DNA of 64,000 bases from Myxococcales bacterium (GTDB lineage Bacteria; Myxococcota; UBA727; JABDBI01): contig JAHFEF010000009.1 in assembly GCA_023248545.1 (NCBI GenBank), positions 1 to 64,000 of the forward strand, given 5' to 3'. Numbering within the stretch: position 1 is the first letter of the stretch; the number at the start of each line of letters is the position of its first letter. The position numbers were made by a program, and so were the translations under genes. The notes under the pieces are model-generated. The model saw only the letters and a list, made by a program, of their open reading frames with translations. It was not told the DNA's origin and made no database searches. Shown one piece after another: positions 38,261 through 61,991 of this stretch.

Positions 38261-39106
38261 TTAAGCCCTTGGGTGGTACTTGTCATATAACTCATGCAAC
38301 CGCTTCTGATCTACATGCATATAAATTTCGGTGGTTGACAAGTCCGCATGGCCCAACAAAGCCTGAATCCCCCGGATATCTGCGCCACGTTCTATCAAAT
38401 GGGTCGCAAAACTGTGCCTCAGTTGGTGTGGCGAAATCGACTTTTGGATGCCGGCCAACTTAGCGTATTTTTTGAGCAGCTTCCAAAATCCCTGCCGGGT
38501 CATTGGAAAGAGCCTTGCCTGCCGCAGCTTCAGTGAAGGCAGGTCTAGTGCCGCAATCGCCTTCTCACCAAGCGGCACCAAGCGTTCTTTGTTGCCCTTG
38601 CCACGAACTTTCACAAAGCCTCGCGACAAGTCTATGTCTTCTTGGGTAAGTGAAATCAGTTCAGACACACGCAAGCCCGTCGCGTAGAGCGTGCAAACCA
38701 TCGCGTAATCTCTGGGATCTTTAATCGCAGCCAATAGAGCATCTATTTCTTCCAGGCTCAAAAATTGGGGCAGTTTAGAAGGCATCTTGGGTAATTCTAA
38801 ATCAGCTGCCGGGTTTATTTTGAGCACCCCTTCACGCATCCAGAACTTAAAAAACTGCCTAATAGCCGAGAGATGCCGATTTTGACTTCGTACACCGATA
38901 CCTGAATCTGTGAATGCTTTTTGATAGGCGATTAAATCTTGTTTATTAAAAGCTTCGGGAGTTAGTCCTAGCCGATCAGCATACGCCGCCAAGCGCTCCA
39001 AATCGCGCCGATAAGACTCCATGCTGTTCATACTTAGCGCTTTTTCGACTTGGGCATAGTTGATAAAACCCGTAATGGCCTCGGGCCAGGAATTAAAACC
39101 GCTCAT
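38261..39106 (-). CDS. xerD: Tyrosine recombinase XerD
   Basis: 281 residues from ATG at 39106. N-terminal SAM-like core-binding domain, then the catalytic domain with Arg in TGLRVSEL near residue 150, Lys in GKGNKERLVP near residue 175, HQLRHSFATH near residue 245 and the nucleophile Tyr in TTEIYMH near residue 275. XerD/XerC resolve chromosome dimers at dif. A second Xer protein is encoded at 45157-46005. Naming as XerD rests on gene context beside scpAB. The start overlaps the hipA stop by 14 bases. Confidence 0.92.
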   Translation of the reverse strand: MSGFNSWPEAITGFINYAQVEKALSMNSMESYRRDLERLAAYADRLGLTPEAFNKQDLIAYQKAFTDSGIGVRSQNRHLSAIRQFFKFWMREGVLKINPAADLELPKMPSKLPQFLSLEEIDALLAAIKDPRDYAMVCTLYATGLRVSELISLTQEDIDLSRGFVKVRGKGNKERLVPLGEKAIAALDLPSLKLRQARLFPMTRQGFWKLLKKYAKLAGIQKSISPHQLRHSFATHLIERGADIRGIQALLGHADLSTTEIYMHVDQKRLHELYDKYHPRA

Positions 39107-40367
39107 GCAGCTCACCAATAAACTCAGTTATTTGAGCACCCAAGCCAGCTTGTTGCGCAAAATCTGGCCACTGCTTAACAACCTCAGAAACCTGCTTGAT
39201 GACCTGGTCAGCTTTGCCAATTCCAAACCGGTCAGCCAATTTCAGCAAATCTTGCGTTTCAAAATTTTTAAACTTTCCCGAAACCGACATCAAATGCTGA
39301 TGGGTCCATTCACCCTGAGGATTATGCGCAAAAGTGATATCATAAGCCGGGGCGAGCTCCCAGTTGCGACGGCCATGACGTAAAATAAACGCAAAATTTT
39401 TCGTATGGTCATCGCAATTTTTGGCCATGACATTAAAAACCATTCGACGAAAAGCCTCAACAAAACCATCGGGCCCCAAACCCAGCTGCTGCAGGGTTAA
39501 AAATAGCTGTTCATAGCTGTTGGTGGACTTTTTCTTGTAATCAAGATGACTCATCGCACACAGGCTTTGCACGTGATGTTTAAGCCCTTGCTCCCGGTCA
39601 AATCGTCGCGTCATGAAATGTGCGCGGCCATGTTCGGTCAATAAGCGACAGTCAGACATCTGAATGCCCGCAGCAAAGGCCATCAGGAAGTAGGCATACT
39701 CGATGCGACCATAATCTTGAGAAGCGCCCAGCTCTTGGTCTCTGCCAACGCCGTCAAATTTAAGCAACCAATGCTCAAACCCGGCAGGTGCCTCCAATTG
39801 ACCGGACCGAATCTCATGCGTGTGAGGATTCCAAGCGATGACTGCTTTGGCACGCGCACCGCCGGCCGACGTCCCCACTTCGATCATATTTTTGAGTGCC
39901 GCGTGGCTTTGCAGGTCTTCTTTAAAATGACCCTGAAGCGCTTGTCTGGCCAAGACCACCAATTCAGCCAATTCTATAGCGATTGACGTTTTGGCGTGAG
40001 CCCCTAACACCGGTTTAAATTCCAAAGCTCCCATTGACCGATCGCCCATGTAAGCTAGCCTATCCAGTGGCGTGATATCGGACGCCTTCACGCCCTGCTC
40101 AGCCATATAACGATCAATCAAAGCATTCCCAAAGTCATCCGGCAGCACGTCGGCCAATAACGCCGGCAAACGCCTGTAGGTCACCACCGGCAAGTCGGTA
40201 AAAACAAACGGCCTCGTGGCTTCACGCAAAGGCATTTGCAGAGGCGCCAGCTCTATCCCGTGTTTCACAAACTCAGCGTCATAGCTAAAAACATAGTATC
40301 CCAATGCTGGGTCAAGCGCGATAACCCCCACCAGCTCGCCCCAAATGAGAACCCTGACTGCATTCAT
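39093..40367 (-). CDS. hipA: HipA-family serine/threonine kinase toxin
   Basis: 424 residues. HipA kinases phosphorylate glutamyl-tRNA synthetase and induce growth arrest. The N-terminal subdomain has LPALLADVLPDDFGNALID near residue 67; the ATP site has TSAGGARAKA near residue 165; the catalytic NCDDHTKNFAF is near residue 315 and the metal-binding YDITFAH near residue 340. Its start overlaps the hipB stop as ATGA. Its 3' end overlaps xerD, so the toxin gene lies inside a transcript with essential cell-cycle genes. Confidence 0.92.
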   Translation of the reverse strand: MNAVRVLIWGELVGVIALDPALGYYVFSYDAEFVKHGIELAPLQMPLREATRPFVFTDLPVVTYRRLPALLADVLPDDFGNALIDRYMAEQGVKASDITPLDRLAYMGDRSMGALEFKPVLGAHAKTSIAIELAELVVLARQALQGHFKEDLQSHAALKNMIEVGTSAGGARAKAVIAWNPHTHEIRSGQLEAPAGFEHWLLKFDGVGRDQELGASQDYGRIEYAYFLMAFAAGIQMSDCRLLTEHGRAHFMTRRFDREQGLKHHVQSLCAMSHLDYKKKSTNSYEQLFLTLQQLGLGPDGFVEAFRRMVFNVMAKNCDDHTKNFAFILRHGRRNWELAPAYDITFAHNPQGEWTHQHLMSVSGKFKNFETQDLLKLADRFGIGKADQVIKQVSEVVKQWPDFAQQAGLGAQITEFIGELHERF

Positions 40368-40669
40368 AGGGGCCTCTTCTGTCGACTTGCGCGTTGTCTA
40401 TAAGGCTTATCCCGAACCATGTAGAGTGGGTTAATACTTACTTGCGGCGCCAATGCAAAAATCCAATCCTGACGCCCCAGCGTTCTGACTGCACGAATCA
40501 GCGTGTGCAGCGTTGCCCCGTGTCCACACTCTAGATTTCTGAGCGCCGTGAGACTAATTCCAGCGCGCTCGCAGACCGCTTGGCGCGTCAGATTTTTTTG
40601 AAGCCGAAGATTTTTAATCGCTTCGCCTAATTTTTGCTCCAACTCTGGGGTGGTAAACATGGATTCCAT
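40364..40669 (-). CDS. hipB: HipB-like HTH antitoxin
   Basis: 101 residues with a Xre-type helix-turn-helix (LGEAIKNLRLQKNLTRQAVCERAGIS and ALRNLECGHGATLHTLIRAV). It should neutralise HipA and repress their shared promoter. The C-terminus ends with a basic tail (YRQRASRQKRPL), longer than usual. The predicted -10 box ends 8 bases before the ATG and no Shine-Dalgarno sequence is present. Confidence 0.88.
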   Translation of the reverse strand: MESMFTTPELEQKLGEAIKNLRLQKNLTRQAVCERAGISLTALRNLECGHGATLHTLIRAVRTLGRQDWIFALAPQVSINPLYMVRDKPYRQRASRQKRPL

Positions 40670-40677
40670 AAAATATC

Positions 40678-40706
40678 ATCTTAAAGCATTTAAATGCCAA
40701 TTTCAA
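40678..40706 (-). promoter_or_regulatory. hipBA promoter with palindromic operator
   Basis: Minus strand: -35 TTGAAA at 40706-40701, a 17-base spacer, -10 TAAGAT at 40683-40678, then 8 bases to the ATG. A perfect 12-base palindrome GCATTTAAATGC at 40686-40697 fills the spacer, and a wider imperfect inverted repeat (AAAATATC at 40670-40677 with GATATTTT near 40725-40732) encloses it, consistent with HipB binding to nested sites. Confidence 0.65.
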
Positions 40707-40751
40707 GTCCAAATGTTTTAATAAGATATTTTAGTGCAAAGCTGTTTGAAA

Positions 40752-41111
40752 CTATGCCGGATCAATCACACTCACAACTCGATTCACAATTTCTAAAATC
40801 AGATCTGCATCGAGGGCCTCGATATAACGAGCCGTACCAGCCTGCACTCGAGCCTGAACATCAAAAGAACGCACCTGGTTACAAACAGCCACACCCGTCG
40901 TGTCATAGCCCATAATATGAACGGTTAGACCCATATTTCTGGCAAAAGCCCCACCAGAAGTAATCGGTACCGCCATCGCCACCCCCAAGGCGTTGATTTC
41001 CTGAGGCGTGATAATCACAAAACGATGACGATCTTTCATTTCACGGCCCGCGACAGGGTTTGGATCGATCCAATAAACATCGCCTCTTTGGGGGATTTTG
41101 CGAGCGCTCAC
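40752..41111 (-). CDS. MazF/PemK-type mRNA interferase toxin
   Basis: 119 residues from a GTG at 41111, overlapping the antitoxin stop as GTGA. The family pattern is clear: RGDVYWIDPNPVAGREMKDRHRF, then VVAVPITSGG and MGYDTTGVAVCNQVRSFDV, ending with an Ile/Val-rich helix. PemK/MazF toxins cleave single-stranded mRNA. It lies directly upstream of hipBA, on the same strand. Confidence 0.88.
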   Translation of the reverse strand: MSARKIPQRGDVYWIDPNPVAGREMKDRHRFVIITPQEINALGVAMAVPITSGGAFARNMGLTVHIMGYDTTGVAVCNQVRSFDVQARVQAGTARYIEALDADLILEIVNRVVSVIDPA

Positions 41112-41377
41112 GTAAGTTCTCTGCCAACAGGGGCACCTTCTCGCGCCCACTCAGTTTCAGCGTTAAGAGCCCGCATGTTTTGCTTCGTAGCCCCATCTAA
41201 AAGCTCGGCCAGCGTATAACGCTTGCGCTTGGTCTTGATGGGATGAGCCAACAAGGCATCTTTTTGAACCTCAAGTTCAAGCGTTGTCCCAATCTCCCAG
41301 TCCAGCTGCTTCAAGCTGGCACTAGGAATCGTGATCACTGCGGCTCCCCCTTGCTTTCTGATGTCTACTGCAACCAT
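41108..41377 (-). CDS. MazE/AbrB-type antitoxin
   Basis: 89 residues from ATG at 41377; the nine upstream codons in frame read through the promoter. The N-terminus is a SpoVT-AbrB swapped-hairpin DNA-binding domain (VAVDIRKQGGAAVITIPSAS), followed by RYTLAELLDG and an acidic C-terminus that would block the toxin. No Shine-Dalgarno sequence; the -10 box ends 6 bases before the ATG. Confidence 0.85.
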   Translation of the reverse strand: MVAVDIRKQGGAAVITIPSASLKQLDWEIGTTLELEVQKDALLAHPIKTKRKRYTLAELLDGATKQNMRALNAETEWAREGAPVGRELT

Positions 41378-41383
41378 GAGATA

Positions 41384-41412
41384 ATAATAGCACAAATGTA
41401 GCACTAATTCAA
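41384..41412 (-). promoter_or_regulatory. mazEF-type promoter with direct-repeat operator
   Basis: Minus strand: -35 TTGAAT at 41412-41407, a 17-base spacer, -10 TATTAT at 41389-41384, then 6 bases to the ATG. Two GTGCTA direct repeats 11 bases apart (one helical turn) at 41388-41404 overlap the promoter. The -35 box lies inside the last codons of the Hint gene. Confidence 0.7.
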
Positions 41413-42221
41413 CGGCTCAAACCGAACCATCTCAACCAGCCAAGCAGTGACAGGTCAGTCTCCGTGGGTGATTTTGAATCCAGAAATTTTCGCCCAAGAG
41501 CCTGTCGCTTGAGATAGAAATACCAGGAAGCGGCCACAGGGCTATTGGTATGGGCAAAGCAACTGGCTTTGACTTTTTGTGTTCCCACAGCCAAGGTCCC
41601 GCTCGCTGTCAGCGGCGCATAGACTCCTTCCGTATCGACTTCCATGATCATCCCAACTTTTATGCTCTTGCCTGTTTCGGCGTGAATCAAAGATTGGCCT
41701 AGGTCGATATCGCTGGCGAACTGTGACCCCATTCCATCGACAAACAAAATATGGTCCGGAGAAACGCGTAAAAACGGGGCGTTATCATCTTCACTGCTAT
41801 AAAACTCAAGCATACGAGACTTCTGCTGCGCATCCGCATGCAGGTAGCCCAGAAATTCAGTTCGTTGACCGTCACCGTCTAGCACAAAATCCCCGGGGCT
41901 CAGTTGAGTAATCGCCACAGGATTGGTTTCACCATCCGCACTCACCCGATACACCATCGTATCTTTCGAAAAACAGGATGTAGATTCACAGTGACCCGCG
42001 AATTGGGTGAAAGTAAGATACTGAGTGTTATTGCCAAGTGACGTCACTATCCCACCCGTCGGGTATTGCTTACTGCAATCGCTGCTATCTGTAACCACAG
42101 TACAAGTAAAATTAGTTCCACCCCGCTCATTGGTGCGGATTATCCCTGCCGCGCAATAATTGTAATTAGCCAATGCCGGCAAACTCAAAACCAAAATAAG
42201 AGAAGCAACCAACAATTTCAT
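41409..42221 (-). CDS. Secreted Hedgehog-type Hint domain protein
   Basis: 270 residues with GGAGG 5 bases upstream. Residues 1-18 are a signal peptide (cleavage after LALA or PALA). A small domain of about 64 residues with four Cys (23, 40, 49, 78) follows. From Cys83 the sequence matches the Hedgehog-type Hint fold: CFSKDTMVY, LSPGDFVL, the block with SPDH (His157) and LF, and GVYAPLTASGTLAV then KASCFA with Cys221. In Hedgehog proteins this domain cleaves itself at the Cys and transfers the released N-terminal part to a nucleophile. The 49 residues after Cys221 resemble the start of a lipid-attaching tail only loosely. Downstream of amiC by 48 bases. Confidence 0.85.
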   Translation of the reverse strand: MKLLVASLILVLSLPALANYNYCAAGIIRTNERGGTNFTCTVVTDSSDCSKQYPTGGIVTSLGNNTQYLTFTQFAGHCESTSCFSKDTMVYRVSADGETNPVAITQLSPGDFVLDGDGQRTEFLGYLHADAQQKSRMLEFYSSEDDNAPFLRVSPDHILFVDGMGSQFASDIDLGQSLIHAETGKSIKVGMIMEVDTEGVYAPLTASGTLAVGTQKVKASCFAHTNSPVAASWYFYLKRQALGRKFLDSKSPTETDLSLLGWLRWFGLSR

Positions 42222-42269
42222 CGAAACCTCCGTTAGGTCAACAAACTAAAGGAGTGAATGATTCCCGGT

Positions 42270-43316
42270 TTAACGCACTGCCAGTTTCTCTTCAGAGTAA
42301 CGCTGGATGCCCTTCACGATGCCCTCAGCCAGGGCGTCTTGATAGTCGTCGTCCTTCAGGCGCTTTTCATCGGTTTTATTCGAAATAAAAGAAGTTTCGA
42401 CTAAAATTGCCGGCATTTTGGCACCCATCAGGACATAAAACATGGCCTGCTTAAGTCCCAAATCTTTAATATCATCCCACTGTTCTAATAAATTGCCACA
42501 GAGGCTATCTTGAACCATACGACCCAGCCTCACACTGTCACTCACGCTAGATTTCATGGCCAAATCGGCCAAGATAAACTCCAAGTTCGATGTCTCTGAC
42601 TCGCTCATCGCGTTTTCCCGCGCAGCCAATCTGAGTGCATAACGGTCATGCGTAATATTCAAGTAATAAGTCTCGATGCCCTGAGTATCACGATTTGGCG
42701 AAGCATTCACATGCACAGAAACAAACAGGTCTGCTTGCATTCGATTCGCAAAATCTGTCCGACTTGGCAGCGCAAGCGTCTTGTCATGGTCCCGCGTCAA
42801 AAACACCTGCGTGCCAGGAATGCTTTTCTCAATCCAATTTTTGACGCGTTTGGAAACAGCCAAGGTCACGTCTTTTTCACGCAGCCCCCTCTTACCAATG
42901 GCGCCTGGGTCATCCCCCCCGTGTCCTGGGTCCAGCACAATTCGAAGAGGCTTTTTCTCTTCGGGTTCTAAAAGCTCACGCGGCAGTTGGGGCCCTGACT
43001 CTTTGGCAACTTGCTTCATCGACAAACGTGACTTGCCGTCAACCTCCGCAACAATTCGAACTGTATTTTTTGAATACTGAGCGATTCTGATCTTAAATAT
43101 ATTTTTGTCTTTAGAAGCCAGCACACTCGGCACTTTAGGCCCAAGTTTGGCTGGTTTAACATCAAAAATTATTCGTTTTTTTTGCTTCTTGGTCTTGGGA
43201 AGTTCGCTTTGGCTGATTTGAAGCTTGGCTTGGGATTCGATGTTGAACTCTGACCCCTTCAGATCGATTCGATCTATCTGGCCCACAAAAGCCAATGTCA
43301 ATACTAATGCAAACAT
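42270..43316 (-). CDS. amiC: N-acetylmuramoyl-L-alanine amidase (AmiC-type)
   Basis: 348 residues. A signal peptide (FALVLTLAFVG) is followed by an AMIN-like peptidoglycan-targeting beta domain (residues about 40-115) and an Amidase_3 catalytic domain: VLDPGHGGDDPGAIG with zinc ligands, then Glu in GLREKDVTL, FVSVHVNAS with a His ligand and the catalytic Glu in LVETSF. It cleaves the stem peptide from peptidoglycan during cell separation. The promoter abuts the ATG. Confidence 0.93.
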   Translation of the reverse strand: MFALVLTLAFVGQIDRIDLKGSEFNIESQAKLQISQSELPKTKKQKKRIIFDVKPAKLGPKVPSVLASKDKNIFKIRIAQYSKNTVRIVAEVDGKSRLSMKQVAKESGPQLPRELLEPEEKKPLRIVLDPGHGGDDPGAIGKRGLREKDVTLAVSKRVKNWIEKSIPGTQVFLTRDHDKTLALPSRTDFANRMQADLFVSVHVNASPNRDTQGIETYYLNITHDRYALRLAARENAMSESETSNLEFILADLAMKSSVSDSVRLGRMVQDSLCGNLLEQWDDIKDLGLKQAMFYVLMGAKMPAILVETSFISNKTDEKRLKDDDYQDALAEGIVKGIQRYSEEKLAVR

Positions 43317-43322
43317 GGTAAA

Positions 43323-43351
43323 AGTATGATCAAATTTTCAAAAAATCGCAA
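43323..43351 (-). promoter_or_regulatory. amiC promoter
   Basis: Minus strand: -35 TTGCGA at 43351-43346, a 17-base spacer, -10 CATACT at 43328-43323, then 6 bases to the ATG (leaderless). In the duplicate copy at 44117-44273 the corresponding boxes read TTGTGA and CACACT with an 18-base spacer, so only this copy looks functional. Confidence 0.55.
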
Positions 43352-43429
43352 TGCTCCTCACAGAATCTGTCAGTAATATCGCGTTTGGAGGCCACGGCGT
43401 TGTTCGTTTCGTGCCGTTTGTTTTGCCAG
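43351..43429 (+). pseudogene. Truncated copy of the rlmD 5' end
   Basis: ATG at 43351 opens MLLTESVSNIAFGGHGVVR, nearly identical to the rlmD N-terminus (MLITESVSN at 44177). Six residues are missing, then FVPFVLP, after which homology ends and the frame runs into unrelated sequence opposite the membrane-protein gene. It is a remnant, not a working gene. Confidence 0.85.
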
Positions 43430-43437
43430 TGGATTAT

Positions 43438-44016
43438 CTACAATGCAATAGCAGCGATATAAAGTCCTGGCACAACCCAACCTGCAGCCACAGATGCAAG
43501 ACCGATACCAAATGCAGCCTGCAAATTGGGTTCAGTGCTTCCGTATACCGGTGCTGTGGCATTTTGGAAAATATAGTAGTGGTTATCTTCTTTGGCATAG
43601 GCGACAATGCCCGCCACACCTGCGATCAATGATGAGAGAGCACCAGTGACTGCAACGGTCCCCGCCACTATTGCTGGACGTGTATGCCAATGATCAGGCA
43701 ACTCCCTAATAGCAAAGATTCCAGCCAAAGCAGAGACTGCAGTTAATCCAGAAGCCATTCCGAAAGTTACCTTGCTACACATCAAACTGTTGATGATACG
43801 GTGATATTCATTATAGTTTGGATCGTCATATTGTAACACGTGGTCTTGTGCTTGTTTCGATGTATAGGCACCCGCCGCGTACAGAGCCACCATCACAGGT
43901 GCCAGAAGTGTGGCAGCGATGGCAGCTTTTTTATTACGATAATAATTAGCCGACGCTGGCATGCTGAATATCAGCAACCCAAAAACAAGTGATATACTTT
44001 TGAACAGTCTAAACAC
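43438..44016 (-). CDS. Membrane protein of unknown function (insertion cargo)
   Basis: 192 residues from a GTG at 44016, with GGAGG 7 bases upstream. A signal-like N-terminal helix (ISLVFGLLIFSMPASANYY) is followed by about four further membrane helices (AAIAATLLAPVMVALYAAG, FGMASGLTAVSALAGIFAI, AIVAGTVAVTGALSSLIAG, AAFGIGLASVAAGWVV). The even spacing and Ala/Gly content suggest a compact polytopic inner-membrane protein. Not recognised. It lies exactly between the two copies of the amiC/rlmD duplication, so it looks like inserted cargo. Confidence 0.65.
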   Translation of the reverse strand: MFRLFKSISLVFGLLIFSMPASANYYRNKKAAIAATLLAPVMVALYAAGAYTSKQAQDHVLQYDDPNYNEYHRIINSLMCSKVTFGMASGLTAVSALAGIFAIRELPDHWHTRPAIVAGTVAVTGALSSLIAGVAGIVAYAKEDNHYYIFQNATAPVYGSTEPNLQAAFGIGLASVAAGWVVPGLYIAAIAL

Positions 44017-44116
44017 AACGATTCCTCCAAGACGACGTCACTCGATCGTATAACAGGTTAATACCTATAGGTATTCCTCGAAAATTTCTGCCAAATCCGG
44101 GCTGAAAACCAACAAA

Positions 44117-44273
44117 CTATCTAGCCCACAAAAGCAAACATGCTAGAAGTGTGATCAAATTTTCAAAAAAATCACAATGCTCATCACAGAATCTGTCAGT
44201 AATATCGCGTTTGGAGGCCACGGCGTTGTTCGTCATGAAGGCAAAGTTGTCTTCGTGCCGTTTGTTTTACCAG
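44117..44273. repeat. Duplicated amiC/rlmD start region, copy B
   Basis: Second copy. Here the rlmD start is intact and continues into the full gene, while the amiC part is decayed: about 17 bases of the amiC 5' coding region are missing and only a few codons remain. The two copies differ at scattered positions, so the duplication is not recent. Confidence 0.9.
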
Positions 44274-45184
44274 GCGAAAAAGTTGAATTTGAAATCACAC
44301 AGTCCAAAAAATCACACGCTTTCGGGCGTGCTCTGCGCATACTGAACGCTCACCCCGACAGAATCACCCCCAAGTGTGAATATTACGGCCGCTGCGGTGG
44401 ATGCCAGTTACAGCATGCCAGCTATGATTTGCAACTCAAACTCAAACAGCAATTTATTGAAGAGGCTTTGACGCGCATTGGCAAGCTGCAGAATATTCTT
44501 GTCAGCCCGATTATTGGCACTAAGCACCAGTGGGCTTATCGCCGACGCATCAAGCTACACAAACAAGGCGATCAACTCGGATTTATAGGCGTAGACAACA
44601 GCAGCTTTGTGCCGGTCACACACTGTGAGATTGATTCAGGCCAATCGCTCGATTTAGATCCGGATATTTTTGTGCAAGCACACCCTGAACAAAGCGAAAA
44701 GCTATATGGCGACTTGCTGAACCAGATTAAGCAGCTTGGTACCCCCAAAATACTAGACTTATATTGCGGCATGGGCATTCTGACAGCCAGGTTGGCCGCG
44801 CTCGGCTGCGAAGTCACAGGCATTGAATTAAATGCCAAGGCCATCGCCTGGGCACAAAAAAATCATGCGCACCCTATTCGCTGGGTAGTCGCAGACGTTG
44901 CCAAAGTCATGGCTGGTTATTTAAAACGAGATCGCCCTGCAGTCGTCCTGGTTAACCCGCCTAGAACCGGCCTAAACCCAGAAGTCACAAACGCGCTGGT
45001 CACATACAGGCCCAAACATATTTTTTATACTTCGTGTATGCCAGCAACTTTGGCGCGCGATTTGAAAATCTTGGTAGAAGCAGGTTATGTTATCGAACAG
45101 TGCCAGCCGTATGATCTGTTTCCGCAGACCACCCATGTTGAAACTGTAGTGACTCTATGCTTGAACTCATCCAAGACTTCCTGA
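44177..45184 (+). CDS. rlmD: 23S rRNA (uracil-C5)-methyltransferase, RlmD/TrmA type
   Basis: 335 residues. An N-terminal TRAM-like beta segment (residues 1-55), an iron-sulfur Cys cluster (CEYYGRCGGC near residues 73-82, with a later Cys in THCEID), and the SAM-binding methyltransferase domain (DLYCGMGILTARLA near residue 195; NPPRTGLNP near residue 258; the catalytic Cys in YTSCMPATLARDL near residue 283). The usual E. coli protein is about 430 residues; here the middle linker region is shortened. RlmC or TrmA activity cannot be separated by sequence alone. Overlaps xerC by 28 bases. Confidence 0.85.
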   Translation: MLITESVSNIAFGGHGVVRHEGKVVFVPFVLPGEKVEFEITQSKKSHAFGRALRILNAHPDRITPKCEYYGRCGGCQLQHASYDLQLKLKQQFIEEALTRIGKLQNILVSPIIGTKHQWAYRRRIKLHKQGDQLGFIGVDNSSFVPVTHCEIDSGQSLDLDPDIFVQAHPEQSEKLYGDLLNQIKQLGTPKILDLYCGMGILTARLAALGCEVTGIELNAKAIAWAQKNHAHPIRWVVADVAKVMAGYLKRDRPAVVLVNPPRTGLNPEVTNALVTYRPKHIFYTSCMPATLARDLKILVEAGYVIEQCQPYDLFPQTTHVETVVTLCLNSSKTS

Positions 45185-46005
45185 CTTACCTGGAACACAT
45201 CAAGCATGTGTCTGCTCATACACTCGATGCGTACCGCAATGACTTGACCCAATTTCGCGAATTTCACCCCAAGATAGCGCTCAAAGATCTCGATCACCGT
45301 CATATTAGAAGCTTTCTCGCGAGCGTTCGAAAAGACCACAAAGTCACTTCTGTGGCCAGAAAACTGAGCGCCATCAAATCATTCTTGCGCTGGTGCGCTA
45401 AAGAAGGCCATTTGCCTAACTCACCAGCCGAGATTGTTGAACACCCCAAATTGCCCCAATCGCTGCCCAAAAGCGTTTCGGTCGATGAAGCCTTTGCGCT
45501 GTGTGAGCCGCCCAATCAAGTGCGCGATCGAGCACTCATAGAACTGCTCTATGCATCGGGTCTCCGTGTGTCAGAGCTGGTCGGCTTGAACATCGAACAT
45601 GTTGATCTAAACAGCAAACTCGTACGCGTGATGGGCAAAGGCCAAAAAGAGCGCCTGGTACCGTTTCATGACACCTGTGCCGAGGCCCTCAAGCTTCTAA
45701 TCGTTGGACAGCCCGCGCAAATGCCGCTGTTCATAGGAGCCCACGGTGCCCGCATGAATGTCCGGGTCGTGCGCCGCCTGATTGGCCAATATGGCAAGAG
45801 CCTGGGGATTGGCGGCAGCGTGTTTCCCCATAGGCTCAGGCATGCGTTTGCCACCCACTTATTAGAAGGCGGCGCGGACTTGAAGGCCATCCAGGAAATG
45901 CTAGGCCATGCGTCGATTTCAACCACCCAACGTTACACAGAAGTCAACCTGGATTACCTGATGAAACTATATGATTCTGCTCACCCGCATGCAAAGCAGA
46001 AATAG
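45157..46005 (+). CDS. xerC: Tyrosine recombinase XerC
   Basis: 282 residues. Core-binding domain (residues 1-90) and catalytic domain with Arg in SGLRVSELVG near residue 145, Lys in GKGQKERLVP near residue 170, HRLRHAFATH near residue 237 and Tyr in TQRYTEV near residue 270. It overlaps the rlmD end, so it is probably translated by coupling. It is the second Xer recombinase in the window, about 6 kb from xerD; which is XerC and which XerD is inferred from neighbours. Confidence 0.9.
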   Translation: MLELIQDFLTYLEHIKHVSAHTLDAYRNDLTQFREFHPKIALKDLDHRHIRSFLASVRKDHKVTSVARKLSAIKSFLRWCAKEGHLPNSPAEIVEHPKLPQSLPKSVSVDEAFALCEPPNQVRDRALIELLYASGLRVSELVGLNIEHVDLNSKLVRVMGKGQKERLVPFHDTCAEALKLLIVGQPAQMPLFIGAHGARMNVRVVRRLIGQYGKSLGIGGSVFPHRLRHAFATHLLEGGADLKAIQEMLGHASISTTQRYTEVNLDYLMKLYDSAHPHAKQK

Positions 46006-46962: not shown

Positions 46963-48576
46963 GTGACCCGAGTAACACAAGCACCCTACAGACCTCTTCT
47001 TGAACTCCGTGCGACAACCCCCACAGAACTTGAGATTCCATGGCTCGACCGGGATGTGGGTATTCAAACAGCCCCAGAGCCTCCTCCAAAAACCCGTCTG
47101 CAAACTATTTTAGAGCGCCCTAAATACCAAAACAAAGCGCTCACCCCATCAGATATCCGGGCCGTTCAACAGGAGCTCAACAAGGACCGCCCATTCAGAC
47201 GCCGATTCCCAAACTTTTCAGCAACTGTATTTGGCCTCGATGAGTTGGCACGCAGGCTCTACCATTCAGGCCGTTATCTGGATGCCGTCCGGCGTGGCGA
47301 AAATCCACCTGGCCCTGTTCCAACGGTTTTTGCTGAACAGGATGTCATGGCCAAAGGAGGTGAACAAGCCAGCACAGCACTCATCTTCGCTGCCAGGCAT
47401 GGCTTTACTGAGATAGCCCTCGCTCTGATAGATAGAATGACCCCAGCCGAACTCAGTTACCAGAACAAAGGAGGCTATTCAGCACTCACGTTTGCTGCCC
47501 GCGAAGGCCATCGCGCAATTTTCGAAGCCATCACAAAACGACTGTTGGCGCACCAGGTTTTTGCCCAAGTTCGGCCCGTGCTCAACTCGCAGTCCACGCA
47601 AGATTTGCTCAAAGCATATGTCGCAGCCGACCCCGATCGCGCCTACCCCTATTTTGTCAAGCCTAGCCCGGATCGAATCCAATTGCCTGAAACAGAACAC
47701 ATCCCGCCTATTTCAGACGAAGGAAAAACACAGATTTACGGCGCCCAAAACACAGAGTTGCTTGCCACCTATATTCTGGAACATACCCAATTTTTACCCA
47801 AAAAAGAACGTCAAAAATTAGAAGAAGTCCTAGGCAACGTCGAATCCCAAGAGCTGATTACATCGGTACCCAAAGATCCGGAAAAACGCGCCATTTTTTA
47901 TGCTTGCATGCGACAAAACCTAGAACATGTCTCGCTGAAGGTGGTCGATCCCGAAATTCCTGAAAAACTCAAAAAATCGGCTTTGTTTGGCATCTGGGAC
48001 AGCGCAGGAACTTGCGGAACCCAACAGTATCAACAAGTATCGCTGGCTCGAAAGTTGCTCACAGGGGATACTTCGAGCAATATAGAACAAACCCCCCTCG
48101 AAAAATTAGAGCATGTTTTGTTTCAGCTCCGCACTCAGATTATTAACCAAATTTCAGCACAATTAATGACCAAGAATCCACGTTGGAATCACGTTCATAT
48201 CTACAACGCCATTCTATCAAAAATTGGGAAAGAGGCCGGTGTCGCTGAGCCGATGGTCGACTATGCTGAAGACCCCCTCATGCCCAAGCTAGACAAAGAA
48301 GCGCTGCTCAAAGAATTTCAGAAGCACTACGAACCCTGCAAAATTATTGAAACACTGATCTCACAAATACCCGGCGTTTTGAGCGAGCTCATCGCGGGGC
48401 AAGAACAACCCGATCTGTTTTACAAAAACGTCGAGGACTCTGAATCACCGGATTATTATGCGCTGACCGATACCGCCATGCCTTCTTTGCTGATATCGCT
48501 GGGTATTTTTGAACTTCAAGAAATGCCAGGGTATGAAATGCCGCCGTTTTTGAGGCAGTTTGAAACCTCACCCTAA
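46963..48576 (+). CDS. Ankyrin-repeat protein of unknown function
   Basis: 537 residues from a GTG at 46963 that directly follows a hairpin (GGGCA...TGCCC at 46945-46962). No Shine-Dalgarno sequence. Two ankyrin-like repeats lie near residues 135-195 (TALIFAARHGFTEIALALI and SALTFAAREGHRAIFEAIT). The remainder is a long helical region without recognised domains, with a Pro-rich N-terminus (APEPPPKT). No signal peptide is seen, so it is either cytoplasmic or secreted by a signal-less route. Adjacent to a kinase, a regulatory or host-interaction role is possible but not shown. Its stop codon lies inside the REP-like element. Confidence 0.7.
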   Translation: MTRVTQAPYRPLLELRATTPTELEIPWLDRDVGIQTAPEPPPKTRLQTILERPKYQNKALTPSDIRAVQQELNKDRPFRRRFPNFSATVFGLDELARRLYHSGRYLDAVRRGENPPGPVPTVFAEQDVMAKGGEQASTALIFAARHGFTEIALALIDRMTPAELSYQNKGGYSALTFAAREGHRAIFEAITKRLLAHQVFAQVRPVLNSQSTQDLLKAYVAADPDRAYPYFVKPSPDRIQLPETEHIPPISDEGKTQIYGAQNTELLATYILEHTQFLPKKERQKLEEVLGNVESQELITSVPKDPEKRAIFYACMRQNLEHVSLKVVDPEIPEKLKKSALFGIWDSAGTCGTQQYQQVSLARKLLTGDTSSNIEQTPLEKLEHVLFQLRTQIINQISAQLMTKNPRWNHVHIYNAILSKIGKEAGVAEPMVDYAEDPLMPKLDKEALLKEFQKHYEPCKIIETLISQIPGVLSELIAGQEQPDLFYKNVEDSESPDYYALTDTAMPSLLISLGIFELQEMPGYEMPPFLRQFETSP

Positions 48577-60846: not shown

Positions 60847-61991
60847 TGTCCTGCTGCGATTTCTATCAGCGATCCCTGAGGGACCTCGTCTGTAAACACA
60901 TACATGACCTGGAAGCTGGCCAAATTGAACTGGAACAGAACACCCGAGTTGTGAGTCCCCCCGGCAGCAGTCAAACCATAGAAATTACCGTCGCTCGCCA
61001 GAAACAGGGAATCCTGCGGGTTGGCACCATGAGTCCCATCGAAGTCATGTTTGTTTTGATAGATGGACGCGGCTGAATTATACTGGAACAGAACCCCCAA
61101 GTTGTTGGCCCCTCCGACGGTGGTTAAACCATAAAAATTCCCATCGGCACCCAGAATCAATGAACCCCGTGGACTGGCACCGTTGGTGCCATCGAAATCA
61201 TATTTGTCTGTATAGGCCGACGTGCTCGGATCAAATTGAAACAAAACTCCCTGACCATTTTTTCCACCCAGATACGTCAGCCCATACAACATGCCATCAG
61301 CACCTTGAATTAAAGACCCGTGAGGATGTGCTCCCGTGGGGTCATTAAAAATCCATTCGATGGTATAAATCGCTGTAGTCAAATCATATGAGAACAAAAC
61401 ACCTCGACCTTGATGCCCTCCTGTATAAGTCACCCCGTATAACTTTCCATTACTGGCCTGAACCAGAGAACCATACGGGTTGGTTCCGTCTTCCACCGTG
61501 GAGTTAAATTCATACCGAACTTGATAGCTGTTGGTTTCCGACGCGTATTCAAATAAAACACCGTTTCCTGAGGTGCCTCCAAACGTGGTGAGCCCATAGA
61601 ATTTGCCATTGGTCGCTTGAATTGAGGATCCCTTGTAGTAGGCCCCATTATTTGCCAAGAACAACCCATTGACCTGGGCCAGGGTAGAATCAGTTTGAAG
61701 ACTCGTTCCTCCGACGGGAATGCTAAAAATCCTGTTAGAAGTAAAGCCGATCAGTCTATCAATAGAACTGATCAGAGTAGAAGTAGGAGCGGGATTCGGG
61801 GCAACAGAAATAGGGCTCTGCTCAGGAGGAACGGCCGATAGCGGCGACTCGTCGATGCCACCCGCAGAACCAGCGTCCAACGCCGGCGCCCCGGAAACAG
61901 GGCTCTGAACCCCGCAGCTCAAACAGCCTGCTGCAAATATTCCAATTATCAACGACCGGATCCTGCCCAGCCTCCTCTTGTGAAACGCCAT
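60843..61991 (-). CDS. Lipoprotein with GloVer-type repeats
   Basis: 382 residues. A signal with lipobox-like AAGC near residue 22 (FAAGCLSCG) suggests a lipid-anchored protein. A Pro/Ser/Ala-rich linker follows and then about seven repeats of the Gloeo-Verruco type: SLIQGADGMLYGLTYLGGKN, GVLFQF and KYDFDGTNGA, each about 38 residues. These repeats form a beta-propeller-like surface of unknown ligand. It starts 2 bases after the upstream gene. Confidence 0.85.
   Translation of the reverse strand: MAFHKRRLGRIRSLIIGIFAAGCLSCGVQSPVSGAPALDAGSAGGIDESPLSAVPPEQSPISVAPNPAPTSTLISSIDRLIGFTSNRIFSIPVGGTSLQTDSTLAQVNGLFLANNGAYYKGSSIQATNGKFYGLTTFGGTSGNGVLFEYASETNSYQVRYEFNSTVEDGTNPYGSLVQASNGKLYGVTYTGGHQGRGVLFSYDLTTAIYTIEWIFNDPTGAHPHGSLIQGADGMLYGLTYLGGKNGQGVLFQFDPSTSAYTDKYDFDGTNGASPRGSLILGADGNFYGLTTVGGANNLGVLFQYNSAASIYQNKHDFDGTHGANPQDSLFLASDGNFYGLTAAGGTHNSGVLFQFNLASFQVMYVFTDEVPQGSLIEIAAGH

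What the first reader, a model, noticed from the sequence alone, without database searches (positions are those of the whole stretch)
43274..44273. Membrane-protein gene bracketed by duplicated amiC/rlmD starts
About 155 bases spanning both divergent gene starts occur twice, on either side of the 43438-44016 gene. The outer partners are intact (amiC at copy A, rlmD at copy B) while the inner partners are decayed (18 bases lost in one, 17 in the other). This fits integration of a circle carrying the same region by a single crossover, or a tandem duplication with replaced middle.
Basis: seen in the sequence. Interest (0 to 1): 0.6.

Follow-up and report, generated by a model that had tools for sequence, protein, structure and literature searches.

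The report
Gene inserted with duplicated flanking DNA
A bacterium gained a small membrane-protein gene between two back-to-back genes, and about 157 bases of the landing spot were doubled in the process so that both neighbours kept their starts; this type of insertion is already known from restriction genes, and here it carries a different kind of gene.

Summary
Copy A (43274-43429) and copy B (44117-44273) match at 131 of 138 aligned columns, with two 18-base gaps and one 1-base gap (score 206, against at most 38 in 2875 random window pairs). They bracket 687 bases whose only plausible gene is X, a 192-residue membrane protein. The same-genus genome G001 has one unbroken amiC-rlmD junction; G004 has unrelated genes there without repeats. 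Of ten differences between the copies, the six that relatives can polarise all lie in the inner, redundant halves.

Best reading: one insertion that duplicated its target, the geometry published as "insertion with long target duplication" for restriction-modification genes, here with an orphan membrane gene. In copy A the start codons are 34 bases apart and amiC has a conserved leaderless-type promoter, so keeping two copies spared both neighbours.

X belongs to a lineage-restricted family (5 members here, 3 in G006, none found in 6 other family genomes). Similar bracketing surrounds two toxin-antitoxin-like loci in the samples, but such pairs are not significantly commoner than in controls (P 0.44). 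The molecular step is undetermined; Ku was not found in G000 or G001, ComEC-like genes were.

The parts
42270..43316 (-). amiC-type N-acetylmuramoyl-L-alanine amidase (AMIN + Amidase_3), intact left neighbour
   Evidence: Pfam PF01520 E 1.2e-51, PF11741 E 4.5e-6
43274..43429 (.). copy A of the duplicated junction: first 43 bases of intact amiC, 34-base intergenic, stub of rlmD start lacking 18 bases
   Evidence: alignment; repeats; intergenic length
43323..43351 (-). amiC promoter-like element in copy A: TTGCGA, 17-base spacer, CATACT, then 6 bases to ATG; same geometry in G001 and G004
   Evidence: sequences; family-wide excess of -10-like hexamers 6 bases before ATG
43430..44116 (.). inserted segment, 687 bases, single copy in the genome
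   Evidence: bounded by the two copies; genome search
43438..44016 (-). gene X, 192 aa: signal-peptide-like N terminus and four predicted membrane helices; GTG start preceded by GGAGG
   Evidence: ORF; hydropathy; sequence; model with 8-row alignment mean pLDDT 69.1, pTM 0.65; paralogues
44060..44075 (.). perfect 16-base palindrome AATACCTATAGGTATT upstream of X, found at this one place in the genome with up to 2 mismatches; possible operator (untested)
44117..44273 (.). copy B of the duplicated junction: stub of amiC start lacking 18 bases and with a stop, decayed amiC promoter-like element (TTGTGA, 18-base spacer, CACACT), intact rlmD start
44177..45184 (+). rlmD/rumA 23S rRNA (uracil-C5)-methyltransferase, intact right neighbour
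   Evidence: NCBIfam TIGR00479 270.8 bits, cut-off 183.55; NF009639 232 bits, below its cut-off of 458

Best explanation
Gene X was inserted as a 687-base segment into the junction between the divergent genes amiC and rlmD in one event that also duplicated about 157 bases of the landing site, one copy on each side of X. The start codons in copy A are 34 bases apart and the element that starts amiC abuts the rlmD start, so most simple insertions there would be expected to damage a neighbour; one that leaves a full copy of the junction on each side spares both. Afterwards each inner, redundant half decayed. Shown: the duplication, the unbroken junction in the same-genus relative, the decay pattern, the conserved geometry of the amiC promoter-like element. 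Inferred: a single event, its molecular route (integration of taken-up or displaced DNA bridging two offset points on sister chromosomes, or fill-in of a widely staggered break), and the selective filter.
For: Two copies at 131 of 138 aligned columns with coterminous ends. G001, same genus, has a single amiC-rlmD junction of about 100 bases and no X. X by itself has no relative at E 0.01 in the other 96 of 97 genomes searched. Ten differences separate the copies; the six that G001/G004 polarise (by eye) all lie in the inner partner: five on the amiC side of copy B, one in the rlmD part of copy A. Three of the five break the amiC promoter-like element, which has identical geometry in copy A, G001 and G004. 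A comparable case in G001: a MazF-like toxin gene and its partner bracketed by 67/73-base copies of the start regions of divergent genes, a phosphopantetheinyl-transferase-like gene and a polyA-polymerase-like gene. ComEC-like genes are present in G000, G001, G004 and G006. Published precedent: target duplications of the order of 100 bp (PMC3874152 section 7).
Against: No strain with the empty site of this very species was available; rlmD is only 57% identical in G001 and 70% in G004. Self-comparison gives 6 flank-type two-copy pairs in 1.42 Mb of family sequence against 2 (one locus) in 0.745 Mb of controls, not a significant excess (P 0.44). Other occupied sites (amiC-rlmD in G004, the junction before the polyA-polymerase-like gene in G006) show no duplicated flanks. 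Ku, which classical end joining needs, was not found in G000 (92.8% complete) or G001. The rlmD promoter was not identified, so that half of the promoter argument is weak. Both large losses are 18 bases, unexplained.
Confidence: 0.66

Rival explanations
1. Two steps: a tandem duplication of about 157 bases (or a larger one, later trimmed) arose first, and X landed at or near the joint between the copies, or replaced the middle.
For: Tandem duplications occur at appreciable frequency in bacteria (PMC3784515 passages). The end state is identical to a one-step event.
Against: Needs two or more events, and X must land almost exactly at the joint, leaving no third partial copy (none seen). No relative with a bare tandem copy was seen (G001, G004 and G002 junctions looked at).
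Confidence: 0.17
2. Single-crossover (Campbell) integration of a circle that carried X and the same amiC-rlmD stretch.
For: Gives the observed A-X-B order, and puts the circle's allele in the inner halves, where all six polarised changes lie.
Against: The circle would be about 843 bases with no replication gene and a broken amiC start. No relative of X in plasmids, phages or IMG/VR and no plasmid DNA match; absence from collections is weak evidence.
Confidence: 0.09
3. X is cargo of an unrecognised mobile unit, moved in trans by a recombinase, and the 157-base copies are its attachment repeats.
For: X belongs to a dispersed family (5 members on 4 contigs); a xerC-type gene lies beside rlmD.
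Against: The repeats are made of amiC and rlmD coding starts, not of element sequence. The recombinase gene beside rlmD is also there in G001 and G004, so it is resident. Repeat scans around the C35, C20, C172 and C180 family loci found only matches of 25-33 bases at 68-77% identity, those at C35 lying partly inside the two paralogues themselves (the C18 member was not scanned).
Confidence: 0.05
4. Assembly artefact of a draft genome.
For: The genome is a 41-contig assembly; no reads are available.
Against: The copies differ at ten places, so they are not one read set counted twice. X has paralogues in the same assembly, so it is unlikely to be a stray contaminant.
Confidence: 0.03

Closest known systems
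Insertion with long target duplication (Nobusato et al. 2000, Gene 259:99, PMID 11163967; the paper itself not read, described in passages of PMC3031569 and PMC1643837 and in section 7 of PMC3874152)
   Same: Segment without transposase bracketed by direct copies, of the order of 100 bp, of a target that is single in a relative; mechanism unresolved.
   Different: There the inserts are frequently restriction-modification genes, found between Helicobacter pylori strains. Here it is one orphan membrane-protein gene in a bacterial family with small genomes, at a divergent gene pair with a 34-base spacer, and the comparison is between species rather than strains.
Transformation-induced merodiploidy by interchromatid integration (S. 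pneumoniae, PMC3784515, passages read)
   Same: A taken-up fragment bridges two offset points on sister chromosomes and leaves a duplication.
   Different: There the repeat-mediated duplications are 107 to 936 kb and arise between existing repeats; here 157 bases, with foreign DNA at the joint and no known repeat.
Homology-facilitated illegitimate recombination (search listing and starts of abstracts only)
   Same: Integration of foreign DNA in competent cells with partly illegitimate joints.
   Different: No homologous anchor of X outside the target copies could be shown here.
Transposed genes with flanking repeats in Arabidopsis (PMC2869330, search listing and start of abstract only)
   Same: Single non-transposon genes that moved and are associated with flanking repeats.
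   Different: Plant genome; not compared in detail.

Membership tests
Insertion with long target duplication | Insert bracketed by direct repeats of the order of 100 bp | tested here: met
   156 and 157 bases, 131 of 138 aligned columns identical
Insertion with long target duplication | Repeat is a duplicated target that is single at the empty site in a relative | tested here: met
   G001 has one amiC-rlmD junction; relative is the same genus, not the same species
Insertion with long target duplication | Insert carries no transposase or integrase | tested here: met
   Only X and overlapping shorter ORFs in 43430-44116; no such Pfam match for X
Insertion with long target duplication | Insert carries restriction-modification genes (described as a frequent association, not as the definition) | tested here: not met
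   X has no match above a curated cut-off in Pfam or NCBIfam and none in PADLOC at E 0.01
Insertion with long target duplication | Mobility observed | not testable with these tools
   Needs strains or an experiment
Insertion sequence or miniature transposable element | Terminal inverted repeats and a short target duplication | tested here: not met
   None of the three inverted pairs found lies at 43430/44116 (arms of 12 bases or more); the duplication is 157 bases
Tyrosine-recombinase integrative element | Integrase on the element | tested here: not met
   No integrase ORF in the insert; the xerC-type gene beside rlmD is shared with G001 and G004
Integron gene cassette | attC site 3' of the gene | not tested
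   No attC model was run; X's stop codon begins 9 bases from the end of copy A, leaving no room for an attC in the insert there
Campbell integration of a circle | Donor circle carrying X joined to the same target | tested here: inconclusive
   No match in plasmids, phages or IMG/VR; absence from collections is weak evidence

The most novel reading that the evidence does not exclude
In this small-genome family, insertion with long target duplication is a general route by which small selfish or fast-evolving genes (toxin-antitoxin pairs, orphan membrane-protein genes) enter gene-dense chromosomes, and it is filtered by promoters: because neighbouring starts overlap and many genes look leaderless, chiefly insertions that duplicate the junction survive, so divergent gene pairs become recurrent landing sites.
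Probability: 0.2. Interest if true: 0.55.

Novelty: new member of a known kind. Interest (0 to 1): 0.33.

Why it matters
It extends a little-studied insertion geometry, described for restriction genes, to a plain membrane-protein gene and (in samples of the same family) to toxin-antitoxin-like loci. It suggests a concrete reason why long target duplications are kept: they spare two closely packed gene starts. The decayed inner halves record which copy is in use. It is one well-supported case, not a new type of element.

Tried and rejected
Circle or plasmid origin: protein searches of plasmids, phages and IMG/VR and a DNA search of plasmids found nothing. Annotating X: Pfam, PHROGs, NCBIfam and PADLOC gave no match above a curated cut-off (best Pfam ABC2_membrane 23.5 bits, cut-off 26.9); single-sequence model poor (pLDDT 50.4), 8-row model moderate, PDB fold search gives generic helical bundles with no match at E 0.001 or better; the 3-row profile has no sequence match in the PDB at E 1. 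The 3-row profile also gave weak matches (E 0.016 to 0.096, 27-66 positions) in six phylum-level genomes; I count these as chance. Copy B's amiC promoter driving X: rejected as the main idea, because that element is decayed and X has its own GGAGG. Classical Ku end joining: Ku found in 1 of 8 family genomes (G004), not in G000 or G001. Rate claim: flank-type pairs in the family not significantly commoner than in controls; rejected as evidence for a special mechanism.

Candidate pairs weighed in the scans: among the six counted, G004:C1:117886 looks like the starts of two neighbouring small secreted proteins, G001:C1:83269 is an ambiguous fragment of an AAA-ATPase-like gene (PF09820). Not among the six: G004:C2:851 (similar gene starts, 73%), G000:C35:10491 (36-base palindromic repeat, 3 copies), G001:C1:173054 (two Lcl_C proteins, paralogues), G001:C3:2887 (AAA-ATPase-like, a third partial copy exists), G000:C20:26865 (61-base copy about 2.4 kb from its partner; best ungapped piece 39 bases, too short for the filter; ambiguous). 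RNA families: none at gathering score in 42000-46000. Paper searches on leaderless genes in small genomes and on divergent promoters listed nothing used.

Full report
Observation. Copy A (43274-43429) and copy B (44117-44273) align with 131 identities in 138 columns, two 18-base gaps and one single-base gap; the score is 206 against at most 33.5 in 1000 shuffles and 38 in 2875 random pairs of window stretches. The repeat scan of the whole 64 kb recovers this pair; its other direct repeats are a 153-base tandem pair, a 36-base coding repeat and one weak 31-base pair. The copies lie 843 bases apart start to start. Copy A joins intact amiC to a stub of rlmD; copy B joins a stub of amiC to intact rlmD.

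Neighbours. amiC carries AMIN and Amidase_3 domains. rlmD passes the RlmD equivalog cut-off of TIGR00479 (270.8 bits against 183.55) but not that of the other RlmD model, NF009639 (232 against 458). A xerC-type recombinase gene and a protein-kinase-like gene follow rlmD, as in G001 and G004, so this recombinase is resident and not part of the insert.

Relatives. The one other genome of the genus that was held (G001) has amiC and rlmD divergent with about 100 bases between the called starts and nothing inserted. G004, same family, keeps the gene pair but has other genes at the junction: a DUF6036/AbiEii-like nucleotidyltransferase (weak, PF19502 E 0.0027, below cut-off), a NikA/antitoxin-like protein (weak, PF21983 E 0.0003, below cut-off) and a 255-residue protein without a family match; no repeats of 24 bases or more bracket them. 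The DNA query matches G000, G001 and G004 only, 3 of 8 family genomes; G002's rlmD has another neighbour. As a protein, X matches only itself among 97 genomes at E 0.01, and nothing was found in the genome-contig collection, viral contigs, phages or plasmids.

Which copy decayed. The copies differ by seven substitutions and three indels. Using G001 and G004 as outgroups (by eye), six can be polarised. Five fall on the amiC side of copy B: an 18-base loss, a new stop codon, TTGCGA to TTGTGA, one extra base in the spacer, and CATACT to CACACT. One falls in the rlmD part of copy A: an 18-base loss. All six are in the inner, redundant partner; the other four cannot be polarised. Both large losses happen to be 18 bases; I have no explanation beyond chance.

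Promoter logic. In copy A the start codons are 34 bases apart. On amiC's strand the sequence TTGCGA, 17 bases, a CATnnT hexamer, 6 bases, ATG is kept with the same spacing in copy A, G001 and G004 and is broken in copy B. Hexamers of the TANNNT type ending exactly 6 bases before ATG are enriched in all three genomes: 13 of 288, 13 of 331 and 37 of 478 ORFs against backgrounds of 1.1, 1.2 and 1.5% (P 2e-5, 2e-4, 1e-15), which fits leaderless transcription of some genes. The phylum-level comparison genome G048 (120 ORFs) shows no such peak at 6 bases (1.7%; highest 3.3% at 8 and 9 bases), and Shine-Dalgarno-like words are also enriched in all four, so leaderless starts are not the rule. ORF starts here are mechanical first-ATG calls. 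The amiC hexamer itself does not match TANNNT; the argument rests on position and conservation. I could not identify rlmD's promoter.

Gene X. X has a signal-peptide-like start and four predicted membrane helices. A weak own-genome hit led to two tandem paralogues at G000:C35 (pairwise 31% identity over 118 positions, E 1e-4, for one; the other is not significant against X alone, E 0.093). A 3-row profile then found members at G000:C20 and in G006, and a 7-row profile found a fifth G000 member at C18: 5 in G000, 3 in G006, none in the other 6 family genomes at E 0.01. X is 17-25% identical to its relatives over the full alignment while the flanking copies are 95% identical over aligned columns, so X did not come from a recent copy of these paralogues. 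X has its own GGAGG and a unique 16-base palindrome upstream. What X does is unknown; my best guess is an exported inner-membrane protein of a fast-turnover, lineage-restricted family.

Other cases. In samples of 355,513 (G000), 468,000 (G001) and 599,990 (G004) bases, a uniform filter finds 6 two-copy flank-type pairs. The clearest besides X: 76 bases at 96% around a pair of genes at G000:C20:30967-32412 matching a nucleotidyltransferase substrate-binding protein and a nucleotidyltransferase (PF08780 E 2.7e-43, PF18765 E 1.8e-16; that such pairs act as toxin-antitoxin is recalled), and 67/73-base copies around a MazF-like toxin gene and its partner at G001:C7:29608-30432 (PF02452 E 2.6e-22; partner only a weak MazE-like match, E 0.056), again between divergent genes, a phosphopantetheinyl-transferase-like one (PF01648 E 2.7e-10) and a polyA-polymerase-like one (PF01743 E 4.4e-18). 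Matches of the latter in G004 and G002 begin at query residues 30 and 32, so the start of the G001 frame is mostly duplicated flank. The corresponding junction in G006 holds a different MazF-like gene (PF02452 E 2.9e-29) with an AbrB-like partner (by eye, no Pfam match) and two orphan genes, without flanking repeats. No empty site was found for the G000:C20 case: the downstream gene is not found in G001, G002 or G006 and is 35% identical in G004. Of the remaining three pairs, one flanks a 125-residue lipoprotein-like gene in G004, one looks like neighbouring paralogues and one is ambiguous. Controls of 200,000, 195,000 and 350,000 bases (two genomes of the same phylum and E. coli K-12) give 0, 2 (one locus) and 0. 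The excess is not significant (P 0.44; 0.33 after dropping the paralogue-like pair and counting the control locus once).

Mechanism. The one-step geometry matches 'insertion with long target duplication', described for restriction-modification genes with target duplications of the order of 100 bp (PMC3874152 section 7 read; PMC3031569 and PMC1643837 passages). The original 2000 paper is known to me only through these citations and recall of its title. Ku was not found in G000 or G001, against classical end joining; ComEC-like genes are present in both, so DNA uptake is possible. In S. pneumoniae, taken-up DNA that pairs with both sister chromosomes creates tandem duplications (PMC3784515 passages); a small version of that, or fill-in of a staggered break, would give A-X-B. 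These routes cannot be told apart from the sequence.

Novelty. Literature searches on long target duplications, toxin-antitoxin genes and flanking repeats mainly list restriction-modification work; in what I saw (listings, starts of abstracts, passages of five papers) none describes an orphan membrane gene inserted this way in bacteria. I file this as a new member of a known kind. The bolder claim, that this is a general and promoter-filtered entry route in the family, is not excluded but lacks a significant excess.

Noticed in passing
window 39093-41404: Two toxin-antitoxin-like pairs side by side beyond amiC: HipA-like with an HTH protein (39093-40669) and PemK/MazF-like with MazE-like (40752-41404).
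   Followed up: partly
window 41409-42221 (-): 270-residue protein with a signal-peptide-like start and a Hint module (PF01079 E 1.5e-18) directly beyond amiC.
   Followed up: no
L102 11836-15277 (G001:C1:171836-175277): Reverse transcriptase gene (PF00078 E 8.1e-15) between two Lcl_C genes (PF07603) that share a 194-base, 78% identical 3' end; looks like a diversity-generating retroelement (label recalled, not tested).
   Followed up: partly
L167 1804-4522 (G006:C203) and L165 1946-3907 (G004:C2:671945-673906): The stretch before the polyA-polymerase-like gene holds two orphan genes of similar look in both G006 and G004, plus an AbrB/MazF-like pair in G006: perhaps a recurrent landing site.
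   Followed up: partly
L036 5559-9579 (G004:C4): The amiC-rlmD junction of G004 holds an unrelated three-gene insert, so this junction seems to have been entered more than once.
   Followed up: yes
G000, G001 and G004 samples: -10-like hexamers are enriched exactly 6 bases before ATG, suggesting leaderless transcription of some genes in this family.
   Followed up: partly
L074 6843-9958 (G000:C20:26843-29958): A stub of the 5' end of a 228-residue gene with a RING-like zinc finger (PF13639 E 4.6e-8) lies about 2.4 kb upstream of the gene, with three genes in between, one a second RING-like small protein below cut-off.
   Followed up: partly
window 46963-48576 (+): 537-residue protein with ankyrin repeats (PF12796 E 2.8e-7) next to a protein-kinase-like gene (PF00069).
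   Followed up: no
window 60918-61223: Tandem pair of 153-base units, 72% identical.
   Followed up: no
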